Shown here piece after piece: positions 3,025 to 10,175 of a stretch of DNA of 10,485 bases (within the stretch, counting starts at the first letter, position 1; each line of letters opens with the position of its first letter). The notes under the pieces are model-generated. The model saw only the letters and a program-made list of their open reading frames with translations, was not told the DNA's origin and did no database searches. Origin of the DNA: an uncultured Peptostreptococcaceae bacterium (GTDB lineage Bacteria; Bacillota; Clostridia; Peptostreptococcales; Anaerovoracaceae); contig CAJOQI010000123.1 of assembly GCA_905236895.1 (NCBI GenBank), forward strand, positions 1-10,485, given 5' to 3'. A program made the translations under genes and the position numbers.

Positions 3025-4209
3025 TCATGTGGGAATTTCATATTCTCCCACCAGACTTTGATTTATGCCATAGAACTTAGCAATCCTCTTTAGGGTCTCC
3101 ATGACTTCTTCCTTGGTGAATTTCTTGTTTTCCTTATCGATATAGTTGGGATCCGTAAAGAATACGATAAAGGGAAATCTACTCTCCGGATACCAGTTAT
3201 CGGAGTCAATTCCTTCAAAGACAATTCCCAGAGGATTCAGTTCTTTATCGTAATTGATAGATTTCGCTATTTCCGTAATCGCATATTCATCTTCAAATTT
3301 CTTATACATATTGTATTCTTCCATTAACTCTTTCGCTGTTCTGCTTGAAGAATAATATATGGATTCCCATTTTGCATATCCGGGGTCCAAGATACTTTCT
3401 TCACATATTTCATATAACTCCATATCGGATAATATCTCCCTTATGGCTTCCACATTCTTTGCCTTATATATGGGAAGTGCGTATGCAGATAATAGCCAGA
3501 AGCTACCGCGGCTTTTCCCGTATTTATTAACCGCCATCGCTTTCACAAGTCTCTTTGCTTCTCTGTTTATCAGCTTTTCAGGAGCTTCCATCACCAGAAG
3601 ATTGTATAGTCTTTGAGCTCTGATATATATATCAAAGGCAGATGCCCCTCCGCCAATCCTTTTGGATATTTTTGCATTGATACTATCAACAGACGACCAA
3701 TAGCGGAATATTTCTTCATCGGGGGCCACTTGGAATCTGTCAATCCAATGCTTGGGTTTATTGGTTCTTAGCCTTAACATATCGCTATCCATCAGCAGCC
3801 TTCCCAAGCTTCTCTCAATATCCTTTTCAAAAAATCCATCGGAAATATCCTTGATATACTTTTCCCAGATTTCCAATTCCTCTCCACTGAGTATTTCTTG
3901 ATTCTCGTCCCTGGTTTCTCCCAATTCGGGACCCAATTCTGCCATTTTTACAAGGGCTTTGTATAATCGCCTATATTCCTTGATGAGCTGATCCCTATCC
4001 TCTTCGGTCCAGCTCATACGAAACTCCCTCCAGCACTTCCTCTCTTCTCCTCTTGAAATACTATAGGGCTCTTGGGGTAAAACAAGCCACCCCTTCTTAT
4101 CCGTCTTCTCATACATCAGTTTTATTAAAGCGGTAGGGCCAAGCTTTTCATAGCCTTTGTCCACTTCGCTATATGCATAGTTTCTCTCCAGTTTCTTTCT
4201 GATATCCAT
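3025..4209 (-). CDS. Uncharacterised 394-residue charged protein in the WYL-clpP operon
   Basis: I do not recognise a family. It is soluble: no signal peptide and no clear membrane segment. It is rich in Lys, Glu and Arg with helical stretches; notable pieces are SWTEEDRDQLIKEYRRLYKAL (about 66-86), a Gly-rich turn RIGGGASAFD near the middle, and a hydrophobic strand with FPFIVFFTDPNY close to the C-terminus, as in a small alpha/beta domain. The start is secure: AAAGGAGGG lies eight bases upstream of the ATG, right behind the stop of the WYL gene (16-base gap). clpP follows after 49 bases with its own strong ribosome site. The tight order regulator, unknown, clpP suggests co-expression and a role linked to that ClpP (substrate, adaptor or stress factor), which is inference only. 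Confidence 0.85.
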   Translation of the reverse strand: MDIRKKLERNYAYSEVDKGYEKLGPTALIKLMYEKTDKKGWLVLPQEPYSISRGEERKCWREFRMSWTEEDRDQLIKEYRRLYKALVKMAELGPELGETRDENQEILSGEELEIWEKYIKDISDGFFEKDIERSLGRLLMDSDMLRLRTNKPKHWIDRFQVAPDEEIFRYWSSVDSINAKISKRIGGGASAFDIYIRAQRLYNLLVMEAPEKLINREAKRLVKAMAVNKYGKSRGSFWLLSAYALPIYKAKNVEAIREILSDMELYEICEESILDPGYAKWESIYYSSSRTAKELMEEYNMYKKFEDEYAITEIAKSINYDKELNPLGIVFEGIDSDNWYPESRFPFIVFFTDPNYIDKENKKFTKEEVMETLKRIAKFYGINQSLVGEYEIPT

Positions 4210-4225: not shown

Positions 4226-5335
4226 CTATCTTTTCTTGGTTTGAGTTTTCTTTTCGGTTTTCATCTGGGATTCACTCTCGGTTTTGGTTTGTCTTTTGGT
4301 TTGTGTTTTGGTTTGTGTTTTACTTTGGCTTTTCTTGGCCCCATCGGAGGAGTACTTCTTCAGTCCCTCCTCCAAGGATGCACGAATCTTTTCCCTCAAG
4401 GCTATGGGTGTCACCACCTCCACCTGGTCAAGATTCTGCTTGGCCCAGTATTCCATGGCTTGGGGACTGCTCTTGATTGCTACCGTAACCATTGATGAAT
4501 CCTTTCCATCCTCCTGGATGATAAGGTCTTTCCCAAACTTACTGACAATCTGGTCAATAGCAGACCTCTTTGCCTTAAGAACAATAGTCTCGGGCTTATC
4601 GCTATACATATAGGGAAGGTTCCCCGAAATATACTTAAGGTCAATTTCTCCCTCGTAGCCAGGGATGGATTTAAGAGGTCTCTTCTTCTTATCCAGAACC
4701 TTCATATTCTTAATATGGTCCAGTCTGTAGAAAACAAGGTCCTTATAGGTCTCACTGAAGGCAACCATATAGTAGGTCTGATTTCTCATAAAATAGAGAT
4801 AGGGAGATGCAATGTGGTCGCTTGACTTGTGCATCTTCATATCCGCTTCGTATCTGTGGTATTCAAACTCCACCATCTTGGCGGAACGAACGGCCTGAGT
4901 GATGAGGTCCAAGTTAAGGAATATCTCCTTATTGTCAGTCTTGTTCCAGTCATCCGACATTCTCATAACGTCGATTCCAGGGTCAAAGTAAGTTCCCCCC
5001 AGGTCCATCAGCCTGTCAACCAAGTCCCTCGTATACTCCTTGGGAACGGAAGGATTGCAGAGCACGCTGTGAATGAGAAGACGAAGTTCCGAAGGCTCAA
5101 ACTGGCGGTCACTAAAAAAACAGCCTCGCTTCCCCCCATAGGATTCCACGACACCTTCATCAATAAGCATTCTCACATTCCTACTTACAGCTTTTCTCTC
5201 CATATCCAAGTCATACTCATCCATGGTTTCCATCATCCTTTCAATCTCTTGGATGGTAAGAGGATGGTCCTCGTCGGTATGTCTCTTAAGAAGGTCAAAG
5301 ATGTAGATAAGTGCAAGCTTTTTGGATTTCTTCAT
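4226..5335 (-). CDS. WYL-domain transcriptional regulator with Lys/Thr/Gln-rich tail
   Basis: 369 residues from the ATG at 5335, preferred over an in-frame TTG at 5359 because AAAGGAAG sits at the right distance before it and the promoter -10 lies at 5364-5369. Residues 1-75 form a winged-helix reader (KAVSRNVRMLIDEGVVES as recognition helix and wing). About 150-215 is the WYL domain, with FEYHRYE, ASPYLYFMRNQTYYMVAF and FYRLDHI; the name-giving Trp-Tyr-Leu is YYM here. About 250-325 is the C-terminal WCX-like part. Residues 335-369 are a low-complexity tail of KTQT-like units. WYL proteins sense a ligand, often nucleic acid or nucleotide, and act as repressors or activators of stress, repair and defence genes. 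It heads an operon with an unknown gene and clpP. A perfect palindrome lies just upstream of its promoter, suggesting autoregulation. Confidence 0.9.
   Translation of the reverse strand: MKKSKKLALIYIFDLLKRHTDEDHPLTIQEIERMMETMDEYDLDMERKAVSRNVRMLIDEGVVESYGGKRGCFFSDRQFEPSELRLLIHSVLCNPSVPKEYTRDLVDRLMDLGGTYFDPGIDVMRMSDDWNKTDNKEIFLNLDLITQAVRSAKMVEFEYHRYEADMKMHKSSDHIASPYLYFMRNQTYYMVAFSETYKDLVFYRLDHIKNMKVLDKKKRPLKSIPGYEGEIDLKYISGNLPYMYSDKPETIVLKAKRSAIDQIVSKFGKDLIIQEDGKDSSMVTVAIKSSPQAMEYWAKQNLDQVEVVTPIALREKIRASLEEGLKKYSSDGAKKSQSKTQTKTQTKRQTKTESESQMKTEKKTQTKKR
4286..4321. repeat. Three 12-bp tandem repeats in the WYL gene tail
   Basis: GGTTTGTSTTTT occurs three times in a row (4286, 4298, 4310; the first has C for G). 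On the coding minus strand the array encodes KTQT/KRQT units. Such arrays change length by slippage in steps of four codons, so tail length may vary between strains. Confidence 0.85.
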
Positions 5336-5363: not shown

Positions 5364-5372
5364 ATTATATCA
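5364..5372 (-). promoter_or_regulatory. Extended -10 promoter of the WYL-unknown-clpP operon
   Basis: On the minus strand TGATATAAT is a perfect extended -10. The start would be near 5357, giving a leader of about 22 bases that holds the AAAGGAAG ribosome site before the ATG at 5335. No good -35 is seen; the palindrome at 5401-5418 ends 31 bases upstream of the hexamer, a place that would suit an activator. Confidence 0.75.
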
Positions 5373-5400: not shown

Positions 5401-5418
5401 TGTACCATTTTTGGTACA
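5401..5418. promoter_or_regulatory. Palindromic operator candidate, site 1 (WYL promoter)
   Basis: TGTACCATTTTTGGTACA: two perfect 6-base arms (7 if the flanking A/T pair is counted) around a T-rich core. Its centre is about 52 bases upstream of the predicted start of the WYL operon. The exact reverse complement is found at 5680-5697. Confidence 0.7.
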
Positions 5419-5444
5419 TACTAGTTATCACGTAAGGCTATTTG

Positions 5445-5511
5445 GATTAATTGTTTTATTTGGATTGAGCTTATGAACGGGACATATTGACTTTTCTAAG
5501 AACAATTAATC
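5445..5511. repeat. 11-bp inverted repeat upstream of the WYL promoter
   Basis: GATTAATTGTT (5445-5455) and AACAATTAATC (5501-5511) are perfect inverted copies 45 bases apart. The right arm together with GGGACATAT at 5479-5487 forms a module that is repeated upstream of the AAA+ gene at 9564-9599. It lies between the terminator at 5538 and operator site 1. Confidence 0.65.
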
Positions 5512-5537
5512 GGGCGACCCGGATAGACTCCGAGCAT

Positions 5538-5563
5538 AAAAAAGAGCTCGATCACTCGAGCCC
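5538..5563 (-). terminator. Intrinsic terminator of the AAA+ unit or of a short transcript
   Basis: On the minus strand GGGCTCGA, loop GTGA, TCGAGCTC (5563-5556 with 5551-5544, one G-T pair) is followed by six T residues (5543-5538). The nearest clear upstream gene ends at 5944, about 380 bases away, so it either ends a long 3' region or serves a short RNA starting near 5632. Confidence 0.8.
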
Positions 5564-5943
5564 TTCCGCCTTTTAATTGTCTTTCATAATGTAATATAGC
5601 ATTTTGGGTTTCAACCTGTAAACAATTTTTTTGGTCGAATTATACAACCCATAGTATAAACAGTGTTTTTTAGAGCCTATGTACCAAAAATGGTACATAT
5701 ATAGTACCTTTGTAGATGGCAGTTTGTAACCGTACCTCCCCTGCCAAAAGGTTTTCGATGCCTTGCTGAGATGCGTGGACGAATTACATAAATCTGTATT
5801 ATCCAAAAACCTTATACCTGCACATTATAATAAATAACTCAGATAATAACGGAAAACAACTAACCTTGAACCGAATCTTCGATCCCGGATTGTGTCCAGT
5901 ATGCCGTCCTTTGCTACCTCTGCCAAAACATCCGGAAGTTTTA
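5564..5943. other. Gene-free stretch between the coiled-coil gene and the minus-strand terminator
   Basis: About 380 bases without a convincing gene. It holds operator site 2 (5680-5697) and a lone TATAAT on the minus strand (5644-5639) with no good -35. A 77-codon minus-strand frame (5573-5806) has a composition unlike a protein and runs through the operator. Just after the coiled-coil gene, the minus-strand frame ending at 5825 reads LPDVLAEVAKDGILDTIRD and on to a stop; this looks coding-like but has no start and could be the tail of a lost gene. Confidence 0.5.
5680..5697. promoter_or_regulatory. Palindromic operator candidate, site 2
   Basis: TGTACCAAAAATGGTACA, the exact reverse complement of site 1. 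On the minus strand the identity extends two more bases (TGTACCATTTTTGGTACATA in both). It lies 36 bases upstream of a minus-strand TATAAT (5644-5639), a geometry close to that of site 1, which suggests a short transcript ending at the 5538-5563 terminator. Confidence 0.65.
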
Positions 5944-6459
5944 TTAGAATTCTACATCTATCTCCATGGTTTCGGTGGTATTCACCTTATCCAAGGAGAG
6001 CTGCAATCTCGAGATTTCTTCGCTTACCTCCTTATACTTCTTCTCCACCTCTTCAATGTCATAGTTGGCAATAGTATACTCTATGATATTGTTTCTACTG
6101 TTAAGACCTGTGAGTCTCTCCTTGGGAAGTCTCTTTACCATACGTTCCAGCTTCATCTTAAGACCGTTAAGTTGGGGAATCTTAACCAAAGCCTGGTCCA
6201 CTGTGAGTCCCGGAAACCCGGGAAGTTCGTGGCTGGTATTGAACATATTTATGGTGTGTTTCACCTTTCTAAGAGCGTCATAAAGTTCTTCCAATCTTTC
6301 CTGGACTGCTGCAAAGTCATACTTGGGGCGAAGATCCTCCGCATCTTCTCCCATGGCAATCACAAAGCTTTTGCTATTCTGCTCATTTGTCTTTATCAAG
6401 AGAATTTCTTCTTCAATTTTTCTGACAAGTTTTCCAGCTTCTGCGGATGTGGATTCCAT
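5944..6459 (-). CDS. Small coiled-coil protein, DIP1984-like
   Basis: 171 residues, no signal peptide or membrane segment. Two amphipathic helical stretches (about 48-70 and 133-160) flank a middle with HTINMFN (68-74), GLTVDQALVKIPQLNGLK (84-101) and NNIIEYTIANYDIE (123-136); it ends with LQLSLDKVNTTETMEI. This pattern (IN-x-N-T, Gly-x-Thr-x-x-x-Ala-Leu, LQ-x-x-LD-x-x-N) recalls the DIP1984/DUF6847 group of small helical proteins, whose function is unknown to me; some are labelled septicolysin-like. The start is well supported by AGGAGGG just upstream. It is the last recognisable gene of the unit led by the AAA+ protein, 24 bases after the VWA fragment and in the same frame. Family call is moderate. 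Confidence 0.85.
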   Translation of the reverse strand: MESTSAEAGKLVRKIEEEILLIKTNEQNSKSFVIAMGEDAEDLRPKYDFAAVQERLEELYDALRKVKHTINMFNTSHELPGFPGLTVDQALVKIPQLNGLKMKLERMVKRLPKERLTGLNSRNNIIEYTIANYDIEEVEKKYKEVSEEISRLQLSLDKVNTTETMEIDVEF

Positions 6460-6483
6460 TCTTTCCCTCCTATTATTCTTCCT

Positions 6484-6618
6484 TCATTCTTTTCGCGCGG
6501 GACGACTGTTTATTACAATAGTTCCTTTGATTTCCGAATAGGCTTGAGCAACCTCCCGCTCACTCATGGATGCGGATGTATCGATCATGAACAAAATATT
6601 CTTGACGGTAGAATCCAT
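6484..6618 (-). pseudogene. Fragment of a VWA (MIDAS) domain protein, 44 codons
   Basis: The minus-strand frame from ATG 6618 reads NILFMIDTSASMSEREVAQA and then EIKGTI before running out into RPARKE and a stop. DTSAS (13-17) is the DxSxS metal-binding motif of a von Willebrand factor A domain, and the flanking strand and helix match the start of VWA-like proteins of the DUF2201 type, which are often paired with AAA+ ATPases. A VWA domain needs about 180 residues, so this is the beginning only; the rest, including later MIDAS residues, is missing. AGGCGG sits before the ATG, nine bases after the AAA+ stop. The fragment is in the same frame as the AAA+ gene (one TAG and three codons between them), so it could also be the tail of a former fusion. 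Too short for ordinary gene callers. Confidence 0.65.
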
Positions 6619-6627
6619 AAGATCCGC

Positions 6628-9477
6628 CTAACTGGCGAATCCTATCCTTCTCTCTTCAACTTTTTCTTCGGACTTCCCGTCGGGAATATCGCATTCTTCG
6701 ATGGTTGTGAGAAGTTCCTTGGTAAAGTCATCCTGAAACTCTTCCAAAACTCTTTCCGCAAGATTCATCTCTGCCTCTTCAAGAATATTACGGACGAAAC
6801 GACCGTTGCCATAATCGCTTTCACCGCATACCCTCTCATAGGTCTTTCTAAGCTTCTTCATAGCCCTATCTGTAATGGTCATTTCTTTCTTTGATGCCAT
6901 AAGCTTAGTGATTTCGCACAGCTCATCTACGCCGTAGTCATCAAATTCAATATTAAATGCTATGCGGGATTTCAATCCGGGGTTTCTGGCAAGGAATTCC
7001 TTCATGGGCTGGGGATAACCCGCAAATATTACAATGGTATCTTCCCTGTGGTTTTCCATTTCCTGGACTATGGTATTGATTGCTTCGTCTCCGAAACTAT
7101 TGTCATAACCATCGCAGAGAGAATAGGCTTCGTCGATGAATAGTACGCCTCCCCTTGCTTCTTTGAACTTTTCTTCAACCATGGGAGCAGTCCAGCCAAC
7201 ACAGGGACCTACCAAATCCTTACGTCCAACTTCCAGGAATTTGCCCGTGGGCAAAACATTTTCATCCTTAAGCATCTCCGCAAGGAGTCTCGCCACGGTA
7301 GTCTTTGCTGTACCCGGGTTTCCGGTAAATACCATATGGAGGGAAGCTCTTTCTCTCTGGATTCCTCTTTCCATGCAAAGCTTGTTCACCTTAAAATTGG
7401 CCACAGCCTTCTTGATGGTCTCCTTTGCTGATGCAAGGCCTATCATCTCCTCCAGTTCTTTCTTCGCACTCCCCTTTTCTCTCTCTTTGCTCATGCCCTC
7501 TTCAAGCATGGTTATATCTTCTTTGGTGAGAAGAAAAATCTTATTTTCTTCCAGTCCCTCTGCATCTTCCCTCCCGGAAAGAAGTCGTACTGCCTGGTTT
7601 CTGGCTGCTCGGTCAATTAAGTTTCTGACAAATCTGCCATTGCCAAAGCCATCTATATATACTGCCTTTTCAAAAATATAGCGAGCTTCCAAAACGGCCT
7701 CTTTCGTTGCGGTAAAACCGCGCTCCTTCAACATCAGCTTAAAAATCTCAGTAAGCTCATCCACATTGTAATCAGGGAAATCAATCCAGTTTGGTATTCT
7801 GCTCTTCAGGCCTTCGTTCTTCTTCATGAAGTCCTTCATTCTTCCGTTATAGCCTGCCAGAATAACAATCACATTGTCTCTGTTGTTTTCCATCTCCTGA
7901 ACCAGAGCGGTGATACTATCCTGAGTGACCATGGCATAGGCTTCATCAATGAAGAGCACCCCTCCCTTTGCTGCGACGAAGGCATTTCTTACCTGAAAAT
8001 CAAAAACCAGGTCCGTTCCTCCCCTTTCCACGCATACTCCGCTTTTGAGAACCCCCTTATCTCTTGCGATTTCAGCAAAGAGTTTAGCCACCGTTGTTTT
8101 TGCGCTTCCGGGATTTCCCGCAAAGACCATATGCATGGCGCCTGATTCATAGTCGCCGCCAAGGGCTTTCTTTCTCTCCTTGTCCACGATGAAATTGGCT
8201 ACCATATCATTTATATGCTTTTTCACAATATCCAGACCGATTAGACTCTGAAGTTTTTCATAGGCAGACTTCCGGTCCGGATCTCTATCCAGCATAAATC
8301 CACCCTGAGGATTATAGTTATAGGCCTTCAAGATATTCTCGTTTAGACACCAGGGCTCGAACTGTTCGTAGGCCTCCATCACCTGTGTCTGTGTGAAGGT
8401 CTTTCCCGAGAAACGCGTCATGAATGTCTCTGCCTGAGATTGATACTTGGCATACTCCGACTTCTTAATCAAAGACTTAAGATAACCGATTGCGGTCTTT
8501 CTGTCTCCACTGCCTTCCTTCAGCGTAAGGGCTATTCCATACTTGCTGAGATTGGGCAGAATATAGTATGCGAATCCCGGCTTATCGATATTATAGGTGA
8601 ATACAAAGAGACATTTATTGCGATAAGTCTTGAAGAGCTTTTCAATATATTCGCTGGCCATTAAATATTCTTCGGGTTTATGCCCAAATCTGGCGGATAA
8701 ATCCACAACCAGCATCCCACCATAGTTGTTTTCTATTATATCTTCCATATAGGAATTGGAACCTGCAACGTCGGGATGAATCGCCTTTATCACCCCAACT
8801 CGCCTGCTTGTTATGCGCTTTGCACCAAGAAGCTTCTGGGCCAGAATCTCGGTCATGTCTTTTGCAGCCTCAATGCTCCTTCCCGAAATAACATAGTGAA
8901 CCAGATTACCTGCTCCCTCCAGGGAATTCTTGTGCTTCTCAATATTGTCCAGCTCATCAACGAAACTTTTGTCATAGATAGGGAGGGCCTTCCGAGGTTT
9001 GTCCGATACGATAAATTCGCTGAAATCATACCTTATAAAAACAGTTCTGTTCTTTTCGTTGTTGCTCCATCGATACATCTCATAAAAGCAATCCTTAAAG
9101 GTATCCCTACACCAGGAATATCCGTTATGATAATCCCTTCTGTAGGCCTCTTGAATATGGTGGTAATAGTCCCTCATAGTAATTTCAATTGGCTCACCCA
9201 TAAACCTCCTTATGCCGAAAGCTGAATTCAGTACATCTCTGAAATAGGAGCAAGCGTCATGATAGGTGAACTTATTGTCATCATAAGCAAAGGCTCCCAG
9301 AAATCCGTCCTCCTCTTCTCTATAAAGGAAGAATGTAGTTCCTCTCTGCAAAGTCCTATACATATAGTCATTCAATCTGTTGACATTGTTTTGATATCCG
9401 TATTGCCTCAGTTCTATTTTGGCCTTTTCCTGAAGTTCTTCTTTGTTTCCTTTAATTGCAAAATTATAATATCTCAT
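6628..9477 (-). CDS. Multi-module AAA+ ATPase of the CbbX/SpoVK type
   Basis: 949 residues, cytoplasmic. Two intact modules: D1 about 405-660 with Walker A GNPGSAKTT (454-462), Walker B GGVLFIDEAY (505-514), GLKSRI with Arg560, and GNGRFVRN (612-619); D2 about 675-920 with Walker A GNPGTAKTT (719-727), Walker B GGVLFIDEAY (776-785), GLKSRI with Arg838 and GNGRFVRN (890-897). Upstream, residues 190-340 echo the same fold in worn form: VHYVISGRSIEAAKDMTE at the Walker A position (no Lys-Thr), NNYGGMLVVDLS (251-261) at Walker B and CLFVFTYN at sensor 1, suggesting a dead third module. D2 keeps the pore loop DLVGPCVGWTA; D1 lacks it. The first 190 residues are unrecognised. Such ATPases remodel proteins as hexamers; the client is unknown. 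Start supported by GGGAGGAG just before the ATG. Confidence 0.93.
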   Translation of the reverse strand: MRYYNFAIKGNKEELQEKAKIELRQYGYQNNVNRLNDYMYRTLQRGTTFFLYREEEDGFLGAFAYDDNKFTYHDACSYFRDVLNSAFGIRRFMGEPIEITMRDYYHHIQEAYRRDYHNGYSWCRDTFKDCFYEMYRWSNNEKNRTVFIRYDFSEFIVSDKPRKALPIYDKSFVDELDNIEKHKNSLEGAGNLVHYVISGRSIEAAKDMTEILAQKLLGAKRITSRRVGVIKAIHPDVAGSNSYMEDIIENNYGGMLVVDLSARFGHKPEEYLMASEYIEKLFKTYRNKCLFVFTYNIDKPGFAYYILPNLSKYGIALTLKEGSGDRKTAIGYLKSLIKKSEYAKYQSQAETFMTRFSGKTFTQTQVMEAYEQFEPWCLNENILKAYNYNPQGGFMLDRDPDRKSAYEKLQSLIGLDIVKKHINDMVANFIVDKERKKALGGDYESGAMHMVFAGNPGSAKTTVAKLFAEIARDKGVLKSGVCVERGGTDLVFDFQVRNAFVAAKGGVLFIDEAYAMVTQDSITALVQEMENNRDNVIVILAGYNGRMKDFMKKNEGLKSRIPNWIDFPDYNVDELTEIFKLMLKERGFTATKEAVLEARYIFEKAVYIDGFGNGRFVRNLIDRAARNQAVRLLSGREDAEGLEENKIFLLTKEDITMLEEGMSKEREKGSAKKELEEMIGLASAKETIKKAVANFKVNKLCMERGIQRERASLHMVFTGNPGTAKTTVARLLAEMLKDENVLPTGKFLEVGRKDLVGPCVGWTAPMVEEKFKEARGGVLFIDEAYSLCDGYDNSFGDEAINTIVQEMENHREDTIVIFAGYPQPMKEFLARNPGLKSRIAFNIEFDDYGVDELCEITKLMASKKEMTITDRAMKKLRKTYERVCGESDYGNGRFVRNILEEAEMNLAERVLEEFQDDFTKELLTTIEECDIPDGKSEEKVEERRIGFAS

Positions 9478-9563
9478 TTACTCCTCCCTATTCCTTTCTC
9501 TTTACTACATGGGCATTCTACCACCCTATATGAAGCTTCACATTCAACTATTGGTGTAATTAT

Positions 9564-9599
9564 GGGACATATATCCCCCGACTTAAGGCTCAATTAATC
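9564..9599. promoter_or_regulatory. Upstream module shared with the WYL promoter region
   Basis: In plus orientation GGGACATAT (9564-9572), then GACTTAAG (9580-9587), then CAATTAATC (9591-9599). The WYL upstream region has the same order: GGGACATAT (5479), GACTT (5489), CTAAG (5496), CAATTAATC (5503). On the minus strand it is followed at 9564-9559 by CATAAT, a possible -10 for the AAA+ gene, though no clear -35 is seen. Confidence 0.5.
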
Positions 9600-9602
9600 C
9601 CA

Positions 9603-9620
9603 TGTCCCAAAAAGGGTACA
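9603..9620. promoter_or_regulatory. Palindromic operator candidate, site 3 (AAA+ upstream region)
   Basis: TGTCCCAAAAAGGGTACA matches site 2 at 16 of 18 positions; the two changes keep the arms largely complementary (CCC/GGG). It lies 126 bases upstream of the AAA+ ATG and 38 bases upstream of a minus-strand CATAAT. Confidence 0.6.
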
Positions 9621-9665
9621 AAAACCGCAAAATAAAAAGACGATTCCAAAATCCACTGCGGTTTT
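9621..9665. repeat. Second inverted repeat interlocking with the terminator hairpin
   Basis: AAAACCGCA (9621-9629) and TGCGGTTTT (9657-9665) are perfect inverted copies. The right copy lies almost wholly in the loop of the terminator hairpin and the left copy lies beyond its T-run, so the two stems interlock: either a pseudoknot or two alternative folds. Operator site 3 ends directly next to it (9620). Confidence 0.7.
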
Positions 9666-9676
9666 TGGAATCGTCT
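9632..9676 (-). terminator. Strong terminator behind the M41 remnant
   Basis: On the minus strand AGACGATTCCAAAA (9676-9663) pairs perfectly with TTTTGGAATCGTCT (9651-9638), an 14-bp stem with an 11-base loop, followed by TTTTTAT (9637-9631). It begins about 80 bases after the M41 remnant stop and separates that unit from the AAA+ gene. Confidence 0.85.
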
Positions 9677-9755: not shown

Positions 9756-10175
9756 CTAAGTATTATCCGATCTTACAGGTGCTTTCATCATTCTATCAAA
9801 GAACTCTCTGTTTTTGGCGATTATTTCTTTGGCCTTTTTATAATACCTCTGTATCATGGCCCCGGCCAGGTCTTCTATCTTTTTCTTTCTATCTTCCGAT
9901 GTGTCATATTCATAACTCTTATAATCGAAGCCAAACACACATCCGGAGGTAATCATATTCCCCACTATTCCAAAGGCCTGGTTCATATCCTTCGAGTTTC
10001 CGATGTCCTCCATTCCCAACACCTGCTCAGTGGCTGCCATTCCCCCAAGGGAGGTTATCGCCCTGCTCTTAATCCACTCTCCGGTAGTGTCCCCCTCGTT
10101 ATAACAGGATGTGAATCCTCCTCCTTTTTCTCCCAACCGCAAAGTCATTCTATCAGTTGGGGAAAAGGATTGCAT
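9756..10175 (-). pseudogene. Truncated FtsH-like M41 peptidase (C-terminal half only)
   Basis: The 139-codon frame matches the C-terminal half of the FtsH peptidase domain in order: MTLRLGEKGGGFTS aligns with VTIIPRGRALGVTF of E. coli FtsH, SLGGMAATEQVLG with the LGG-x-x-AE helix, GNSKDMNQAFGIVGNMI with TGASNDIKVATNLARNM (Asp63 at the third zinc ligand), then FGFDY and a final helix IQRYYKKAKEIIAKNREFFDRM. Everything before this, including the HEXXH zinc motif and any AAA+ domain, is missing, so it cannot be an active protease. No ribosome site precedes the ATGs at 10175 or 10148; homology starts near 10148. The frame overlaps the 3' end of the small gene upstream, as expected for a deletion that joined two genes. 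Confidence 0.7.

What the first reader, a model, noticed from the sequence alone, without database searches (positions are those of the whole stretch)
5401..9620. One 18-bp palindrome at three sites ties the WYL operon and the AAA+ unit into one regulon
Seen: TGTACCATTTTTGGTACA at 5401-5418, its exact reverse complement at 5680-5697, and a 16/18 match at 9603-9620. All are intergenic, and each lies 31-38 bases upstream of a minus-strand TATAAT or CATAAT. Known: WYL regulators bind DNA as dimers and commonly control their own gene and neighbours. Inference: this is the operator of the WYL protein encoded at 4226-5335, and the position near -52 to -59 fits activation better than promoter occlusion.
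Basis: partly seen in the sequence, partly recalled or inferred. Interest (0 to 1): 0.72.

Follow-up and report, generated by a model that had tools for sequence, protein, structure and literature searches.

The report
WYL regulator operator with local regulon
The repeated 18-base palindrome is very probably the DNA binding site of the WYL-domain regulator encoded beside it; many relatives carry the same site before the regulator gene or before neighbouring genes such as the AAA+ gene, in two promoter layouts that suggest it holds itself down while switching its neighbours on.

Summary
Confirmed: TGTACC-N6-GGTACA sits at 5401-5418, 5680-5697 and 9603-9620 and nowhere else in the held 1.37 Mb of this 79%-complete genome. 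Relatives strongly support that it is the WYL protein's operator: in 73 non-redundant loci encoding relatives of this protein (37-51% identity, window not included), TGTACC-N6 is the top palindrome upstream of the WYL gene, 25 of 73 loci against 0.27 in shuffles. It also recurs before neighbouring genes, including 10 of 19 AAA+ relatives in those loci against 32 of 768 unlabelled genes, so the regulon idea holds for the family. Two promoter layouts appear. Before the WYL gene the site often covers the -10 of a promoter with a good -35 (repression-like). Before other genes a -10 lies exactly 10 nt downstream in 37 of 46 sites (permuted arms: mean 0.125, maximum 2), so the palindrome sits on the -35 as described for the activator DriD, the best fold match. 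Direction of control is inferred; no binding or expression was measured.

The parts
5401..5418 (.). operator site 1, upstream of the WYL gene, TGTACC-N6-GGTACA 12/12
5364..5369 (-). candidate -10 of the WYL gene (extended, TGATATAAT), 31 nt from site 1; weak -35 (3 of 6)
4226..5335 (-). WYL-domain regulator, 369 aa (winged-helix-like N-terminus, WYL, weak WCX)
   Evidence: Pfam WYL 36.8 bits (cut-off 21.8), WCX 19.2 bits (cut-off 23.9); model pLDDT 77.5; best PDB fold match DriD
3025..4209 (-). ORF394, next gene of the WYL operon; no Pfam family above cut-off; a weak homologue in G279 (28% identity) has a 12/12 site 40 nt upstream
5680..5697 (.). operator site 2 (inverted copy), 12/12
5639..5644 (-). 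candidate -10, 35 nt from site 2
5538..5563 (-). terminator-like hairpin with T run; with the candidate -10 it would delimit a transcript of roughly 90-100 nt, or it ends the AAA+ transcript
   Evidence: fold (z -2.2); not in the list of the consensus scan
9603..9620 (.). operator site 3, TGTCCC-N6-GGTACA on the plus strand
9559..9564 (-). candidate -10 (CATAAT) of the AAA+ unit, 38 nt from site 3
6628..9477 (-). 949-aa protein with two SpoVK/CbbX-like AAA+ modules
5944..6459 (-). 171-aa protein, weak DUF6847/DIP1984 similarity (below cut-off); homologue next to the AAA+ gene in L203 and 7 kb from it in L129
6484..6618 (-). remnant of a DUF2201 vWA-domain gene (58% identity over 33 aa to the one in L072)
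   Evidence: (below cut-off)
9630..9676 (-). terminator-like hairpin before site 3, separating the AAA+ promoter from the gene upstream
   Evidence: z -4.6
9756..10175 (-). C-terminal remnant of an FtsH-like AAA+ protease gene (53% identity over 118 aa to the 452-aa gene in G011)

Best explanation
The palindrome is the operator of the neighbouring WYL protein, a DriD/PafBC-like dimeric regulator. SHOWN: the palindrome is conserved upstream of relatives of this WYL gene and before some of their neighbouring genes (AAA+ SpoVK-like, FtsH-like, ORF394-like, large helicase-like, others), and it keeps fixed distances to -10 hexamers. INFERRED: the WYL dimer binds it; on its own gene, in many relatives, the site covers the -10 of a promoter with a good -35, so the protein limits its own synthesis; on other genes the site replaces the -35 and lies exactly 10 nt from the -10, so the bound dimer helps RNA polymerase as described for DriD. 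In the window the same operator lies at the WYL operon and at the AAA+ unit, with spacings of 31-38 nt that fit neither main layout, so the sign of control there is open. The window locus has lost most of an FtsH-like gene and of a vWA gene. The confidence given is for 'operator of this WYL protein with a local regulon'; for the model 'represses itself, activates neighbours' I give about 0.5.
For: Own genome: 3 copies, all here. Same-genus G011: WYL relative 52% identical with TGTACCAATTTACGTACA upstream. 80 loci fetched by protein similarity alone; in 73 non-redundant WYL-upstream regions 25 have 10/12 or better and 13 have 11/12 or better; TGTACC is first of 4096 arms at gap 6 and no arm at any of gaps 0-12 has a higher count; 30 rounds of shuffles gave mean 0.27, maximum 1. 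Sites of 10/12 or better outside the WYL promoter: 55 in 142 kb non-coding against 42 in 1,004 kb coding. Sites within 200 nt upstream: 10 of 19 AAA+ relatives, 5 of 11 U147 relatives, 2 of 4 ORF394 relatives, 3 of 17 FtsH-like, against 32 of 768 unlabelled genes. 46 sites before other genes in 29 loci, 37 with a -10 (score 6 or more) at exactly +10, next best offset 7 of 46; 40 permuted arms gave mean 2.5 sites and mean 0.125, maximum 2, with that geometry. WYL-own sites: 17 of 27 with a -10 (score 5 or more) at -4, mean -35 match 4.35 of 6, against 3.14 for 240 generic promoters of the same loci and 2.46 at random positions. Helix RKA[IV][SG]RN in 52 of 73 proteins. Fold: DriD E 8e-14, PafBC 5e-12, BrxR and CapW from 5e-8. 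DriD half-sites flank the -35 at one distance from the -10, with 1-2 of 6 matches to the -35 (PMC12340889, section 11).
Against: 28 of 73 loci have no 10/12 site upstream of WYL or before a neighbour; in the first look G142 and G172 reach only 8/12 upstream of WYL. 0 of 10 DUF2201, 0 of 7 MoxR and 0 of 2 homologues of the 171-aa gene have a site, and 2 of 19 U508 genes. The window's spacings fit neither main layout. The poor -35 in the +10 class is forced by the operator sequence and is not independent evidence. 12 of 27 WYL-own sites also score at +10 and 11 of 50 other-gene site orientations score at -4, so the layouts are not cleanly separated. At 1 mismatch the motif is rarer than its reversed control in 12 of 13 relatives' genomes, and operator-N10-TATAAT at 2 mismatches gave 44 hits in 39 of 296 family genomes against 21 control hits, only 6 of the 44 within 15 kb of a WYL match listed. 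No binding data. TM-scores to DriD are low (0.37-0.41) and the domain arrangement is uncertain (pTM 0.43).
Confidence: 0.88

Rival explanations
1. Pure repressor of the BrxR/CapW kind: the WYL dimer occludes each promoter it binds and is released by a ligand made during stress or phage attack.
For: WYL-own sites have a -10 at -4 in 17 of 27, as CapW operators overlap the -10 (PMC9122588, passages); BrxR has one operator by its own gene and a second, putative one in the defence island (PMC9122601, passages); sites at +10 cover the -35 region; GmrSD, NADAR and a GajB-like helicase occur in some loci.
Against: +10 promoters leave no room for a -35 (mean 1.95 of 6; extended -10 in 13 of 40), so most would be weak even when free; the fold is closer to the activators DriD and PafBC than to BrxR and CapW.
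Confidence: 0.3
2. Activation from an upstream position in the window, as the first reader proposed (site centre near -52 to -59).
For: The window sites lie 31-38 nt above -10-like hexamers with weak -35 boxes (2-3 of 6); 4 of 27 WYL-own sites in relatives have a -10 at 30.
Against: Spacing varies by 7 nt, about two thirds of a helical turn; site 3's -10 is unremarkable (score 5.4); the 30-nt class in relatives has fair -35 boxes (mean 4.25 of 6, n = 4) and would not need an activator.
Confidence: 0.35
3. The palindrome is an RNA hairpin (terminator or processing site) or a mobile repeat, not an operator.
For: The consensus scan lists 5418-5401 as terminator-like; it is an inverted repeat.
Against: Fixed distance to the -10 in 37 of 46 sites in relatives, three copies in the held genome, no Rfam match there.
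Confidence: 0.03
4. The operator belongs to another regulator that happens to control this locus.
For: No binding data; not every WYL relative has a site.
Against: The loci were found with the WYL protein only and the motif is the top palindrome upstream of it; AAA+ relatives fetched without regard to the WYL clade lack it in 15 of 16; in G090:C50 a diverged WYL (27%) goes with a changed palindrome, TGTCCA-N6-TGGACA, at two places, both 10 nt from a -10 (spacing read by eye).
Confidence: 0.07

Closest known systems
DriD (Caulobacter WYL activator)
   Same: Best PDB fold match; homodimer on a 20-bp pseudo-palindrome centred on the -35 at one distance from the -10, with poor -35 (PMC12340889: passages, sections 11 and 10), as in the +10 class of relatives.
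   Different: Distant sequence; operator TGTACC-N6-GGTACA; local regulon with AAA+, FtsH-like and other genes; the window's own spacing differs; ssDNA sensing not tested.
PafBC and SiwR (mycobacterial WYL activators)
   Same: PafBC fold match; both act at the -26 region of sigma-A-type promoters (PMC10693628 and PMC11804915, passages); SiwR uses a 19-bp imperfect palindrome.
   Different: PafBC is a heterodimer with more than 150 target genes; here one gene, a palindrome and neighbouring targets.
BrxR and CapW (WYL repressors of BREX and CBASS)
   Same: Local control through inverted repeats; CapW sites overlap the -10 (passages), as many WYL-own sites of relatives do.
   Different: Weaker fold match; no BREX or CBASS hit among the five window proteins scanned; most target sites of relatives are at +10 without a -35.

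Membership tests
WYL-domain transcription regulators | WYL domain above the Pfam gathering score with N-terminal winged helix | tested here: met
   WYL 36.8 bits vs 21.8; three helices and a small hairpin at the N-terminus of the model
WYL-domain transcription regulators | C-terminal WCX domain | tested here: inconclusive
   19.2 bits, below the 23.9 cut-off
DriD/PafBC-type activator | operator over the -35 at constant distance from the -10 in target promoters of the clade | tested here: met
   in relatives 37 of 46 sites at +10
DriD/PafBC-type activator | the same layout in this window | tested here: not met
   31, 35, 38; score at +10 below 0 for all three sites; composite pattern 0 hits in G000
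DriD/PafBC-type activator | ssDNA binding and contact with RNA polymerase | not testable with these tools
   needs biochemistry
BrxR/CapW-type repressor | operator overlaps the -10 of the controlled promoter | tested here: not met
   not in the window; present in 17 of 27 WYL-own sites of relatives
BrxR/CapW-type repressor | linked to a known phage defence system | tested here: inconclusive
   no complete system among five window proteins scanned; GmrSD, NADAR and a GajB-like gene in some relatives' loci

The most novel reading that the evidence does not exclude
A clade of DriD-like WYL regulators in gut and rumen Clostridia reads one palindrome in two promoter layouts: over the -10 it represses its own gene, and in place of the -35, exactly 10 nt from the -10, it switches on a changing set of neighbours (AAA+, FtsH-like, helicase-like and unknown genes). 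The operator alone would then mark the members of an undescribed stress or defence island.
Probability: 0.45. Interest if true: 0.76.

Novelty: new variant of a known kind. Interest (0 to 1): 0.62.

Why it matters
Characterised WYL regulators are reported as activators (DriD, PafBC, SiwR) or repressors (BrxR, CapW). Here one conserved operator appears in both layouts within one clade, which makes the question of what decides the sign of a WYL regulator testable with two promoters and one protein. The operator also gives a sequence tag for genes of an uncharacterised AAA+/FtsH-like locus, among them relatives of ORF394, which has no Pfam family above cut-off and no PDB fold match.

Tried and rejected
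Terminator or mobile-repeat reading of the palindrome: rejected on geometry and copy number. Global regulon: not supported; at 1 mismatch the motif is rarer than its reversed control in 12 of 13 relatives' genomes, and a 34-bp operator-N10-TATAAT pattern at 2 mismatches gave 44 hits in 39 of 296 family genomes against 21 control hits (counted from the table), 6 of the 44 within 15 kb of a WYL match, whose list was cut. Copies without a close WYL relative: L006 lies inside a coding region; L009 lies before a YjjI-like glycyl radical gene. Motif carried by the AAA+ gene itself: 15 of 16 AAA+ relatives in loci fetched through the AAA+ protein have no 10/12 site (of the fetched AAA+ loci L139 was left out because its gene starts at the contig end, and the second AAA+ gene of G142 was judged by eye only, 10/12 with loosened arms). 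Short RNA between site 2 and the hairpin at 5538-5563: not followed beyond folding and Rfam (no match there). Coevolution of recognition helix and operator: RKA[IV][SG]RN in 52 of 73, so only the G090 case bears on it. ORF394: 10-sequence model of good confidence (pLDDT 85.7), no PDB match with E of 0.001 or less. Another shared palindrome in the 28 loci without a site: none stood out. First look at 44 loci, 600 bp upstream: 8 reach 10/12, the window's own included; two of the 8 (G080, G141) have WYL proteins of 29-32% identity. Papers: searches; among the entries listed (20 of 323, 10 of 775, 10 of 19, 10 of 19, 10 of 2,389) I saw none on this motif or regulon; unlisted entries were not seen. 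Rows dropped before counts: of 80 loci, L201 and L218 for short upstream sequence and five near-duplicates (L168, L197, L199, L210, L211), leaving 73. Overlap: L146, L151, L157, L162 and L175 have the contig lengths of, and appear to be, G011, G142, G094, G245 and G172, so the 73-locus test is not independent.
Full report
Observation. In the held part of the genome (1.37 Mb, 78.8% complete) TGTMCC-N6-GGKACA occurs nowhere else. Minus-strand -10-like hexamers lie 31, 35 and 38 nt downstream of sites 1-3, with scores 10.9, 8.9 and 5.4.

Surroundings. Minus-strand genes run: FtsH-like remnant (9756-10175), terminator-like hairpin, site 3, 949-aa AAA+ gene (6628-9477; SpoVK/CbbX-like modules), vWA remnant (6484-6618; 58% identity over 33 aa to a DUF2201 gene in L072), a 171-aa gene, site 2, a terminator-like hairpin, site 1, the WYL gene, ORF394 and ClpP. 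Same-genus G011 has a 452-aa FtsH-like gene, then WYL with a site upstream, then the ORF394 homologue; between the first two a short stretch reads MRYYNF, like the start of the AAA+ protein (read by eye). The window looks like one member of a conserved locus with partial gene loss.

Is it the WYL operator? The first look covered 44 loci from family searches, the window's included. Of the seven relatives of 39-52% identity, five have 10/12 or better upstream of WYL (G011, G279, G094, G245, G046); G142 and G172 reach 8/12. Among the more distant ones G080 and G141 have 10/12. A protein-only scan of GTDB genomes gave 80 loci. After dropping two with short upstream sequence and five near-duplicates, 73 remained. 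Among 4096 six-base arms TGTACC ranks first at gap 6, and its count is the highest at any of gaps 0 to 12: 25 of 73 loci at 10/12 or better, 13 at 11/12 or better, against a mean of 0.27 (maximum 1) in 30 rounds of dinucleotide shuffles. The window was not in this set; five of the 73 appear to be genomes already looked at.

Is there a regulon? In the 73 loci, sites of 10/12 or better outside the WYL promoter number 55 in 142 kb of non-coding and 42 in 1,004 kb of coding sequence. 46 of them lie before another gene, in 29 loci. Genes with a site include AAA+ relatives (L147, L148, L151, L158, L171, L172, L189, L203), FtsH-like genes (L177, L207, L225), ORF394-like genes (L161, L164), relatives of the G142 protein U147 (L155, L180, L194, L215, L219; helicase models match the two examined, L180 and L155), a NADAR gene (L151) and a GajB-like gene (L200). 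With denominators (site within 200 nt upstream): AAA+ 10 of 19, U147 5 of 11, ORF394 2 of 4, FtsH-like 3 of 17, U508 2 of 19, DUF2201 0 of 10, MoxR 0 of 7, homologues of the 171-aa gene 0 of 2, unlabelled genes 32 of 768. Of 16 AAA+ relatives in loci fetched through the AAA+ protein, only that of G142 has a 10/12 site. 45 of 73 loci have a site before WYL or before a neighbour, 9 have both, 28 have neither.

Two layouts. For sites before other genes, a -10 hexamer of score 6 or more begins exactly 10 nt after the palindrome in 37 of 46; the next offset, -4, has 7. Forty permuted arms gave a mean of 2.5 sites and a mean of 0.125 (maximum 2) with that geometry. The palindrome's centre then lies where the -35 should be, and a -35 is lacking (mean 1.95 of 6 over 40 of 50 site orientations), which is forced in part by the operator sequence. 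For sites before the WYL gene, 17 of 27 have a -10 of score 5 or more at -4, inside the palindrome (typically TGGTACAAT), with a -35 matching 4.35 of 6 on average; 12 of 27 score at +10 and 4 of 27 at +30, with overlap. Generic promoters of the same loci match the -35 at 3.14 of 6 (n = 240), random positions at 2.46.

Mechanism. The structure model (pLDDT 77.5, pTM 0.43) matches DriD best (E 8e-14), then PafBC (5e-12), then BrxR and CapW (from 5e-8). DriD half-sites flank the -35, at one distance from the -10, with 1-2 of 6 matches to the -35 (PMC12340889, section 11). CapW, a repressor, binds palindromes over the -10 (PMC9122588, passages). The relatives' layouts thus suggest activation of neighbours and repression of the own gene by one protein. 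This is inference from position; binding and expression were not measured.

What this means for the window. All three sites are good copies of the operator. Their 31, 35 and 38 nt spacings fit neither main layout; only site 1 resembles a minor class (30 nt, 4 of 27 WYL-own sites, one of them G011).

Novelty. WYL regulators with local palindromic operators are known (BrxR, CapW, SiwR, DriD). New here are the operator of this clade, its recurrence over an AAA+/FtsH-like locus, and the two layouts. The searches showed no paper on this motif with a WYL protein among the listed entries; the library is open-access only and longer lists were not seen.

Noticed in passing
window 3025-4209: ORF394 family: 9 database proteins (one is the window's own), none with a precomputed Pfam domain; good model (pLDDT 85.7) and no PDB fold match with E of 0.001 or less.
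   Followed up: partly
window 5538-5697: Site 2, a -10 and a terminator-like hairpin could delimit an RNA of roughly 90-100 nt with no gene; alternatively a promoter left after gene loss.
   Followed up: partly
window 6484-6618 and 9756-10175: Remnants of a DUF2201 vWA gene and of an FtsH-like protease gene, with an unbroken AAA+ gene between them.
   Followed up: yes
L128:1993-2010 and L128:3979-3996: Variant palindrome TGTCCA-N6-TGGACA at two places, each 10 nt from a -10 (one before the AAA+ gene), beside a WYL protein of 27% identity.
   Followed up: partly
L161, L180, L220, L225: Three to six operator copies per locus before neighbouring genes (4, 3, 4, 6); several of these genes have no Pfam match.
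   Followed up: partly
L068:1099-1496: Short WYL relative of 111 aa (only the N-terminal region matches) followed by a 12/12 site and an ORF394 homologue.
   Followed up: no
window 4226-4330: Lysine-, glutamine- and threonine-rich C-terminal tail of the WYL protein, absent in the seven relatives aligned.
   Followed up: no
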